Below, one piece after another: positions 37,444 through 40,990 of a stretch of 64,000 nucleotides of DNA (positions are counted from its first letter, which is position 1; each line of letters begins with the position of its first letter). This stretch comes from Halobacteriales archaeon YIM A00010 (GTDB taxonomy: Archaea > Halobacteriota > Halobacteria > Halobacteriales > Haloarculaceae). The stretch covers positions 62,001 to 126,000 of the forward strand of contig JAKCFJ010000002.1 of assembly GCA_025041175.1 (NCBI GenBank). Direction: 5' to 3'. The translations under genes were made by a program, and so were the position numbers. The notes beneath the pieces are model-generated. The model searched no databases. It was not told where the DNA came from and saw only the letters and a list, made by a program, of their open reading frames with translations.

Positions 37444-37738
37444 GGGAGTTTTCAATCGGCGAATCGGTCCTCCATACGGTGGAGACCTGATTCGCAACGG
37501 CGATGATCCCGATTTTAGTGGGAGTTCTATTATAGGCTTTGGTGAATCGCCATATAGCGTTAGGTTGAGGATTTTAGCTGTATTGTAGGCGGTAAGCCCC
37601 CTTTCTCACCGCCCGAACGGAGTGAGGGCGTAGGGAGGGGATACACCGCCGTCATCACCATTCATACACTCTTCAATTGCTGGCTCACAGGCCCACATAT
37701 CGACACATTTATGTTGAAACAATGTGTAAACACCGGTA
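37444..37738. other. Left flank of the TnpB element
   Basis: No gene. TAAGCCCCCTTTCTCACCGC at about 37592 could form the left-end hairpin of the TnpB transposon. TTTGGTGAATCGCCATATAG (37539) resembles the non-B half of repeat B4. Confidence 0.4.
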
Positions 37739-37879
37739 ATGGATAGACACGAAATCGAAGGCAGCGAAGTCATCGAAGGCGAGGTGAAAGCAACTGGCAA
37801 TGGGGCACATGTTCTCGTTCCAAAGCGGTGGCGTGGTGCAGAGGTGAAGGTCGTCCGAACGTCTGACCCCGACGAATAA
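37739..37879 (+). CDS. DUF2080 family transposase-associated protein
   Basis: 46 residues: HEIEGSEVIEGEVKATGNGA then HVLVPKRWRGAEVKVVRTSD. It is complete. The NGAHVLVPKRWRG core matches DUF2080, a small AbrB-like DNA-binding protein found just before tnpB in haloarchaeal IS1341-type elements. It ends 3 bp before the tnpB start and is surely co-transcribed. Confidence 0.85.
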   Translation: MDRHEIEGSEVIEGEVKATGNGAHVLVPKRWRGAEVKVVRTSDPDE

Positions 37880-37882
37880 TTC

Positions 37883-39022
37883 ATGTACTACAACTACAGG
37901 TATCGATTGAACCCGACAGCAGACCAGCGTAAGACGCTGAACTACCACCGTGATACCTGTAGACAGCTCTACAACCACGCTCTCTATCGTTTCAATCAGA
38001 TTCCTGAATCGGCGGGGACACTCAATCAGCGCGTGCGAACAATCCGTGACGAACTCCCCGACCTCAAAGGCTGGTGGGACGCCTTGACTGACGTGTATGC
38101 GAAAGTGCTCCAACCCACCGTCATGCGGATCGAGCACAACGTCACGGCGCTCGGCGAACTCAAGGATCGTGGCTACAACGTCGGTGAACTCAAGTGGAAA
38201 CCACCACGGGAGTTCCGCAGTTTCACCTACAACCAGTCTGGCTTCGAACTCGACAAGAAGGGTGGTCAGACTGTGTTGTCCCTCTCGAAACTGGCGAATA
38301 TTCCGATTCGAATGCACCGACCACTCCCCGAAGCAGCGACGATCAAAGAGGTGACACTCAAGAAAGAACCGACGGGTGAGTGGTTCGCCATCTTCGGGAT
38401 TGAATTCGACCGAGACCCACCGGAGAAACCTGACGAAATTACTGACGCAGTAGGGATCGACGTGGGCATTCTCAACTATGTTCACGACACCGACGGAACG
38501 GCTGTCGGGTCGCTTGACCTCACTGACGAACGCGAACGACTGGAACGCGAGCAACGGACGTTGTCGCGCAAACAGCACGGGTCTAACAACTGGAAAAAGC
38601 AACGTCAGCGCGTTGCAGAGTGTCACGCCACGATCAAACGCAAGCGGCGGGACTTCCTCCACAAACTCTCGACGTACTACGCTACTGAGTACGATCTCGT
38701 CGCCGTTGAAGCGCTCAACGCCACGGGGCTGATGGAACTCCCATCGAACAGTCGTAATCGCGCGTCAGCTGCATGGGGTACCTTCCGGCGGATGCTCGAA
38801 TACAAGTGTGAACATAACGGCACACATTTCGTCGCTGTTGAGCCAGCTGGAACGACCAAAGCGTGTGCAGCCTGCGGTGTCTCGACCGATAAACCATTGT
38901 GGGTCCGCGAACACTCCTGTCCAAGCTGTGGCTTCGAGGCCGATCGAGACTGGAACGCAGCCTACAACATTCTTTCTCGGGGAATCAAGCACGTAGGAGT
39001 GGGACACTCCGAATTGACGTGA
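37883..39022 (+). CDS. tnpB: RNA-guided endonuclease TnpB (IS1341 type), C-terminus cut by a hairpin insert
   Basis: 379 residues. N-terminal WED-like strand (YRYRLNPTADQRKTLNYHRD), helical recognition region, RuvC parts AVGIDVGILNYVHD (Asp 193) and YDLVAVEALNATGL (Glu 276), zinc ribbon C328/C331/C346/C349 and EADRDWNAAYNIL (third Asp). The catalytic set is intact. TnpB cuts DNA guided by an RNA from the element's right end. The TGA at 39020 is the first codon of a 60-bp hairpin insert; after it the same frame resumes as PVETALPTGTTNVPAQRVVE and ends at 39184. Without the insert the protein would have 413 residues. There is no tnpA nearby. Confidence 0.92.
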   Translation: MYYNYRYRLNPTADQRKTLNYHRDTCRQLYNHALYRFNQIPESAGTLNQRVRTIRDELPDLKGWWDALTDVYAKVLQPTVMRIEHNVTALGELKDRGYNVGELKWKPPREFRSFTYNQSGFELDKKGGQTVLSLSKLANIPIRMHRPLPEAATIKEVTLKKEPTGEWFAIFGIEFDRDPPEKPDEITDAVGIDVGILNYVHDTDGTAVGSLDLTDERERLEREQRTLSRKQHGSNNWKKQRQRVAECHATIKRKRRDFLHKLSTYYATEYDLVAVEALNATGLMELPSNSRNRASAAWGTFRRMLEYKCEHNGTHFVAVEPAGTTKACAACGVSTDKPLWVREHSCPSCGFEADRDWNAAYNILSRGIKHVGVGHSELT

Positions 39023-39079
39023 TCCGAGAGACCTTCGGTCTCTCGTCATCACGAAAGGCGCAAAGCACCTTTCGAACGA
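39020..39079. repeat. Twin-hairpin insert in tnpB (60 bp)
   Basis: CGAGAGACC-TTC-GGTCTCTCG (39025-39045) and CGAAAGG-N9-CCTTTCG (39052-39074), flanked by TGATC and GAACGA. The length is a multiple of three, and the tnpB frame is the same before and after it. It introduces an early TGA. Confidence 0.88.
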
Positions 39080-39199
39080 CCTGTGGAGACCGCGCTCCCT
39101 ACGGGAACTACGAACGTTCCTGCACAGCGCGTCGTGGAAGCAGGAAGCCCCACCCTCAACCGCGAGCCGTCAGGCGAGCGGTAGGGTGGGGTAGTTCAC
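39020..39199 (+). ncRNA. Probable reRNA (omega RNA) region of the TnpB element
   Basis: TnpB guide RNAs come from the 3' end of tnpB and the right transposon end. Here a terminal hairpin (CCCCACCCT 39148-39156, AGGGTGGGG 39183-39191) precedes the end GTAGTTCAC (39191-39199). The guide would be read from bases just after 39199. The exact 5' end is unknown. If the twin-hairpin insert is included, it enlarges the RNA. Confidence 0.5.
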
Positions 39200-40570: not shown

Positions 40571-40609
40571 GATTACAACCGCGAGTCAGACTGGATCACA
40601 GTGAACAAA

Positions 40610-40990
40610 GTGAACTACCTCACCTTACCACGCTCGGGGCTACTTGCCCCTTGCTTGTTGAGGGTGTCGCCAGACTACGTCTAGCTGTCACCGGCCTGTG
40701 GTCGGTTGCTTGAGGAGCTTTGCTCCTCACTGCTAACCAGATCGCGCTGCGTTCTGGTGATGGGATCTCGCAAATCACTACGTGATTTGCTGGATACGGG
40801 AAATCTTCGATTTCCGTGATCTCGCAAGAGCAACGCTCTTGCGGACCTCGTGGAGGTTCCCTCCGCTCAGTGACGAGACACTTCGTGTCTCGAACCACTT
40901 GACTCTGAGGCGGTTCACGAGCGACATGGCCACCGTTCTCACCGAATCGTCTCACTTCAAGCCGATGGGACGAGACAGGGCCGTCGATCG
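40610..40990 (-). mobile_element. TnpB-type transposon right end with a hairpin array (remnant)
   Basis: Read on the minus strand the segment ends GGTAAGGTGAGGTAGTTCAC at 40610, nearly the right end of the intact TnpB element (GGTAGGGTGGGGTAGTTCAC). Just before it the frame GDTLNKQGASSPERGKVR resembles the TnpB tail GSPTLNREPSGER. The remaining 250 bp is a chain of hairpins and no tnpB catalytic sequence is left. Possibly a PATE-like non-autonomous element. Confidence 0.5.
40636..40892. repeat. Array of ten mini-hairpins
   Basis: Stems of 4-10 bp with mostly 3-nt loops at 40636-40650, 40672-40682, 40690-40706, 40711-40729, 40736-40758, 40770-40790, 40799-40815, 40823-40843, 40843-40860 and 40874-40892. 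Examples: GCAAATCAC-TAC-GTGATTTGC, CGCAAGAGC-AAC-GCTCTTGCG, CGAGACAC-TTC-GTGTCTCG. Stem sequences all differ; linkers are mostly short (0-21 bp). Confidence 0.88.

What the first reader, a model, noticed from the sequence alone, without database searches (positions are those of the whole stretch)
39020..39079. 60-bp twin-hairpin insert stops TnpB early and enlarges its guide-RNA region
Seen: the tnpB frame ends at TGA 39020-39022, the first codon of a 60-bp unit with two hairpins. Directly after it the same frame continues with PVETALPTGTTNVPAQRVVE and ends at 39184, a normal haloarchaeal TnpB tail. The RuvC and zinc motifs are intact. Known: the 3' part of tnpB overlaps the reRNA. Inference: the insert shortens the protein by 34 residues while adding hairpins to the RNA scaffold, so the nuclease may still work, perhaps with altered RNA.
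Basis: partly seen in the sequence, partly recalled or inferred. Interest (0 to 1): 0.85.

Follow-up and report, generated by a model that had tools for sequence, protein, structure and literature searches.

The report
Haloarchaeal twin-hairpin repeat inside tnpB
The 60-bp insert that cuts this archaeal RNA-guided nuclease gene short is one copy of a tiny two-hairpin repeat scattered through almost all salt-loving archaea, and it sits where the essential protein part ends and the essential guide-RNA part begins, so the nuclease can probably still work.

Summary
tnpB (37883-39022) ends at TGA 39020-39022, the first codon of a 60-bp twin-hairpin insert, and the normal tail resumes in frame at 39080. 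More than 30 homologues and paralogues read straight through the empty junction ACG|CCT.

A covariance model trained without this genome finds it at E = 2.7e-16. F1 occurs in 217 of 243 genomes of the order; in a phylum sample all positives lie in that order. Joints are fixed; stems vary wholesale but stay 97.5% Watson-Crick, and no copy among 133 has two identical stem arms (13.8 expected).

The same tnpB site has been hit recurrently, once by another twin-hairpin family (F4). One origin for the F1-filled copies is rejected (p-AU 6e-5).

The site is the seam between protein and RNA function. ISDra2 TnpB cut at residue 376 still cleaves (PMC10097598); here residue 373 aligns to 378. The insert-bearing IS has transposed as a unit. 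Activity is inferred, not shown; an altered guide RNA is possible but unsupported.

The parts
37574..39199 (+). whole insertion sequence (IS200/IS605-type, tnpB-only) that carries the insert
   Evidence: 99.1% identical copy with exactly these limits and different flanks on contig C3
37739..37882 (+). small ORF, DUF2080 family transposase-associated protein
   Evidence: NCBIfam NF033496 E 1.2e-17; Pfam PF09853 just under cut-off
37883..39022 (+). tnpB, 379 aa, stop TGA 39020-39022
   Evidence: NF040570 guided_TnpB E 4.4e-81; PF07282, PF01385, PF12323
38996..39010 (+). hairpin H1 (GGAGTGGGACACTCC) just 5' of the insertion site
   Evidence: 6 pairs, 3 with compensatory changes, 98.6% of cells paired over 24 sequences
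39019..39080 (+). F1 twin-hairpin repeat; inserted bases are 39020-39079
   Evidence: covariance model R1, built without this genome, 65.8 bits, E 2.7e-16; empty sites in paralogues
39080..39144 (+). guide-RNA scaffold helices P2 (39080-39084 with 39140-39144), P3 and P4
   Evidence: consensus fold with compensatory changes in P3 and P4; third codon positions 99% identical in its first 7 codons
39148..39191 (+). right-end hairpin of the guide RNA
   Evidence: 9-bp perfect inverted repeat; pair probability about 0.95 with or without the insert
39192..39199 (+). right end of the IS (TAGTTCAC); a guide would start at about 39200
   Evidence: homology between copies ends at 39199

Best explanation
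The 60-bp unit is a copy of F1, a haloarchaeal REPIN-like dispersed element: two short hairpins in inverted arrangement with fixed joints and freely changing, always self-complementary stems. It inserted between ACG and CCT of tnpB without a visible target-site duplication. A G-to-A difference in its first in-frame codon (TGG in the consensus) gave the TGA. The site is the seam where the indispensable part of the TnpB protein ends and the indispensable part of the guide RNA begins, so the insertion costs little, and that is why several insertions (F1, and F4 once) are found at this one nucleotide. The truncated TnpB is probably still a working nuclease with a normal 3' scaffold, and the IS has since moved with the insert inside. 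Shown: repeat identity, site, recurrence, duplication of the carrier IS with the insert, RNA-type conservation of the tail after it left the frame. Inferred: mobility of F1 by a single-strand transposase, near-neutrality, remaining nuclease activity.
For: Model R1 from 32 copies of other genomes hits the insert at E 2.7e-16. F1 is in 217 of 243 genomes of the order; in the phylum sample all 26 positives are in the window's order. Covariation: 97.9% of cells paired, 88 both-sided changes vs 34 shuffled, score 0.377 vs at most 0.10 when slid. Empty vs filled tnpB paralogues fix the junction ACG|CCT. F4 sits at the identical nucleotide in L284; a single origin of filled-F1 copies is rejected, p-AU 6e-5 and 3e-5. 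33 of 35 plasmid records show no annotated gene under the match. Seam: ISDra2 without its C-terminal domain cleaves and RNA -231..-117 is dispensable (PMC10097598); residue 373 = ISDra2 378. The first 7 codons after the insert are as conserved at third as at first positions in empty copies (0.99) and stay conserved in filled copies where they are untranslated or out of frame. The carrier IS is duplicated with the insert. dN/dS 0.14 against a second filled copy.
Against: The only close pair carrying exactly this TGA (window and C3) differ by 10 changes, about 3 synonymous and 7 nonsynonymous (2/8 by a cruder count), which shows no selection. Two other insert-bearing copies in the genome are broken elsewhere. 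The dN/dS of 0.14 may partly predate the insertions, since one origin is rejected. Hairpin H1 lies 5' of the insert and covaries, so the haloarchaeal guide RNA may begin further upstream than in ISDra2 and include the insert. There are no activity or RNA data. Recurrence could partly reflect recombination between IS tails in one genome.
Confidence: 0.8

Rival explanations
1. The insert has become a working part of the guide RNA: it adds two stems between H1 and P2 that change folding, processing or TnpB binding.
For: H1, 5' of the insert, is a covarying hairpin, so structured RNA exists on both sides. The insert folds on its own, and in the minimum-energy fold with the insert H1, P2, P3 and P4 all form, whereas without it another fold is favoured. 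Two different twin-hairpin families lie at the same place.
Against: Most relatives lack any insert. The inserts differ in length and stem sequence. In ISDra2 the RNA upstream of -117 is dispensable and processed away (PMC10097598). The folding difference is a prediction only, with modest pair probabilities.
Confidence: 0.12
2. The insertion is a plain inactivating lesion: tnpB has lost its tail and is decaying, and its conservation is left over from before.
For: Window and C3 copies differ mostly by nonsynonymous changes. Copies at C2:220k and C4:190k with the insert are broken.
Against: Window, C3 and C4:283k copies are open through RuvC and zinc motifs. The truncation point lies beyond what ISDra2 needs. 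The IS was duplicated with the insert (a transposase could act in trans). dN/dS is low between filled copies.
Confidence: 0.2
3. The twin hairpins are not mobile; they arise in place by palindrome-forming replication errors, and their joints are similar by constraint.
For: Stems are replaced wholesale while staying perfect, as fold-back copying would give; copies with homologous flanks differ in one stem (L043 vs L045).
Against: The fixed joints (9 + 12 + 9 bases) recur in unrelated flanks across the order, and tnpB copies show clean presence or absence. Fold-back copying may explain the stems but not the dispersal.
Confidence: 0.08

Closest known systems
REPs and REPINs / BIMEs (repetitive extragenic palindromes, GTAG super-family; PMC3733652, PMC3116915, PMC6006769)
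   Same: Short hairpins paired in inverted orientation with a conserved short joint, mostly extragenic, several families per genome, hetero-dimers; the 5' foot GTGG fits GT[AG]G; REP insertions inside genes are known.
   Different: In archaea (PMC3733652 describes bacteria only); one outer foot reads GTCG; the stems are not conserved but turn over wholesale with near-perfect pairing; no dedicated RAYT transposase shown.
CGTC-tagged REPs (PMC3733652)
   Same: Hetero-dimers are common, no dedicated transposase known.
   Different: F1 has CGTC only in its central joint, not as an end tag.
IS200/IS605 TnpB with guide RNA (ISDra2, PMC10097598; haloarchaeal omegaRNAs, PMC12558985)
   Same: Protein family, overlap of the 3' end of tnpB with the guide RNA, right-end hairpin.
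   Different: Carries an F1 copy at the protein/RNA seam that truncates the C-terminal tail.
Double-hairpin elements of fungal mitochondria (from memory) and repetitive hairpin-forming elements of sponge mitochondria (PMC2800124, abstract seen only)
   Same: Tiny hairpin-forming dispersed elements.
   Different: Organelles; no sequence relation tested.

Membership tests
TnpB (RNA-guided nuclease of IS200/IS605) | RuvC and zinc-ribbon domains over the family profile | tested here: met
   NF040570 E 4.4e-81, PF07282 and PF01385; residues 7-373 aligned to ISDra2 9-378
TnpB (RNA-guided nuclease of IS200/IS605) | 3' overlapping structured guide RNA ending at the right end | tested here: met
   Covarying helices H1, P3 and P4 (P2 conserved) and a right-end hairpin; IS end 39199
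TnpB (RNA-guided nuclease of IS200/IS605) | RNA-guided DNA cleavage | not testable with these tools
   needs an assay
F1 haloarchaeal twin-hairpin repeat (defined here) | conserved joints with two covarying hairpins | tested here: met
   E 2.7e-16 with a model built without this genome
REP/REPIN | two short palindromes in inverted orientation with a conserved joint, dispersed, mainly extragenic | tested here: met
REP/REPIN | GT[AG]G foot at both outer ends | tested here: inconclusive
   GTGG at one end, GTCG at the other
REP/REPIN | associated RAYT / Y1 transposase | tested here: inconclusive
   Weak correlation with Y1_Tnp (Spearman 0.23, p 0.005, no phylogenetic correction); 19 of 72 F1-bearing genomes have no Y1_Tnp hit
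MITE of a DDE transposase | target-site duplication | tested here: not met
   No duplication at the junction in F1-filled vs empty tnpB copies

The most novel reading that the evidence does not exclude
Haloarchaea carry a clan of REPIN-like twin-hairpin mobile elements (F1-F4) whose joints are fixed while the stems turn over by paired changes and are forced to differ within each copy. They are mobilised by an as yet unnamed enzyme and use the protein/RNA seam of tnpB as a recurrent safe harbour, which separates the overlapping nuclease gene and guide RNA into two parts.
Probability: 0.45. Interest if true: 0.78.

Novelty: new variant of a known kind. Interest (0 to 1): 0.57.

Why it matters
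It gives natural evidence, in archaea, for a claim made from ISDra2 structure and mutants: tnpB and its guide RNA overlap in sequence but hardly in function. Repeated insertions mark the seam to the nucleotide. It also points to a repeat found in nearly every haloarchaeal genome searched, for which I found no description in the papers held here, with a rule (stems must pair, and the two must differ) that makes its spread and upkeep testable in model haloarchaea.

Tried and rejected
Rfam scan of the tnpB region and of ten related loci: no guide-RNA family matched. Viral contigs and phage records: no F1. Literature search by sequence strings, by haloarchaeal repeats and by REP/RAYT in archaea: nothing on F1 in the held library; most subscription papers are not held, so an earlier description cannot be excluded. 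Y1 transposase as mobiliser: only a weak, uncorrected correlation, with many F1 genomes lacking it. The idea that F1 belongs to tnpB elements specifically: rejected, only 10 of 133 copies lie within 400 bp of a TnpB match. A first pair count on A2 used a structure with its second helix shifted by one column through my typing error; one search is the correct one. One search read minus-strand loci in the wrong orientation for part of the paralogues; one search replaces it for those.

Full report
Observation. tnpB starts at 37883 and stops at TGA 39020-39022; a 60-nt unit with two strong hairpins begins with that stop, and the frame resumes at 39080 with a tail that ends at TAG 39182-39184. The fold of the unit is far better than chance (z = -5.3). 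The stop and insert are shared by a second copy of the whole element on contig C3 (99.1% over 1626 bp, limits 37574-39199, different flanks).

Insert or ancestral? Paralogues in the same genome and homologues in other genomes read ...CTCCGAANNNACG|CCTGTGGAGACTGCGCTCC... without interruption, with open frames mostly of 410-450 residues. Filled copies carry 56-60 nt between ACG and CCT. The F1 copies at C4:283k and C2:220k and in Natronoglomus (L195) have 56, 56 and 59 nt and so shift the frame; the window copy keeps the frame but meets TGA, where these other copies have TCG or TGG. The normal protein tail is therefore lost in each of these F1-filled copies, by stop or by frameshift.

What the insert is. 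Searching the genome with the insert alone gave about 20 places outside this gene, on both strands. Their common plan is GTGGTYCGA-[hairpin]-TCGTCATCACGA-[hairpin]-TCGAACGAC. The central joint occurs 34 times in the genome against 1 for the reversed control pattern, though about half of those sites lack the hairpins. The full pattern is found in 72 of 146 genomes of the family with zero control hits and in many named haloarchaeal genera. From 133 distinct copies the variable stem pairs are 97.5% Watson-Crick with 52 different arms, and no copy has the same arm in both hairpins (13.8 expected if independent). A covariance model from 32 copies of other genomes (pair test) hits the window insert at E 2.7e-16, hits 217 of 243 genomes of the order, and in a phylum-wide sample all 26 positive genomes belong to the order. 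I call this family F1. Plasmid records show no annotated gene under 33 of 35 matches (the PLSDB table is incomplete), and the neighbourhoods looked at hold unrelated genes.

Other twin-hairpin families. Paralogous tnpB tails contain F2 (GTCGCCAGAACC...) and F3 (GTCAAGGGAAATC...GCGCGAC, about 20 copies) at other places. In L284, another species, a fourth family (F4, dispersed in several species) sits at exactly the same nucleotide as F1, 57 nt and in frame. A tree of 43 tnpB sequences needs three changes for F1 filling plus one for F4. Holding the F1-filled copies together is rejected (p-AU 6.4e-5; 3.1e-5 without long branches). Recurrent insertion, precise loss and tail recombination are all possible for F1; F4 shows at least two independent insertions.

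Why this place. In ISDra2, TnpB lacking residues 376-408 cleaves efficiently and guide-RNA positions -231 to -117 are dispensable and processed off, so the needed protein and RNA parts hardly overlap (PMC10097598). Window residue 373 aligns with ISDra2 378, and the insertion lies 120 nt from the right end (39199). In empty copies third codon positions upstream of the junction are 61-68% identical, but in the first seven codons after it they are 99% identical, like first positions. This is RNA-type constraint, and it persists in filled copies where the stretch is no longer translated in frame (1.00, 1.00, 0.93; four copies only). The RNA scaffold helices P3 and P4 and a hairpin H1 upstream of the junction show compensatory changes. 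H1 means that a longer RNA containing the insert is possible.

Activity. Catalytic motifs are intact and dN/dS against another filled copy is 0.14, but the closest pair shows no selection and two filled copies are broken. I infer, and have not shown, that the 379-residue form is active.

Mechanism of F1 spread. The paired inverted hairpins, GTGG foot, extragenic location and lack of target duplication resemble REPINs, which are thought to be moved by Y1 transposases (RAYTs). The link to Y1_Tnp genes is weak here, so the mobiliser remains open. No archaeal description of such elements was found in the papers held here.

Verdict. The finding is real and partly well read. Its better explanation is a haloarchaeal REPIN-like repeat lodged at the seam between the nuclease gene and its guide RNA.

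Noticed in passing
window 40600-40920: Cluster of nested hairpins: F1-model matches at 40793-40849 (E 1.3e-7) and 40853-40898 (E 5e-4), an F3 copy at 40762-40815, an F2-like piece at 40666-40685, beside GTGAACTACC (about 40610), which looks like the right end of an opposite-strand IS.
   Followed up: partly
L043, L045 (C1:2025769, C1:1218496): F1 copies with homologous flanks in which one stem has been replaced wholesale by a different, equally perfect stem.
   Followed up: partly
133 F1 copies, many loci: The two hairpins of a copy never have the same arm, although 13.8 such cases are expected; identical arms would make one long palindrome.
   Followed up: partly
L101, L104, L116, L120, L130: F1 copies that appear to sit in the loop of the right-end hairpin of tnpB elements, a second recurrent place.
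   Followed up: partly
L106:7000-7143: Two F1 copies in direct tandem within a Halorubrum context (gactgaagcgc|F1|agcgagcgtgcg) that recurs across Halorubrum.
   Followed up: no
G000 C1:2671320-2671375 and C2:59129-59190: F1 copies overlapping the 5' parts of other tnpB genes or remnants.
   Followed up: no
window 37739-37882: DUF2080 family transposase-associated ORF directly before tnpB.
   Followed up: yes
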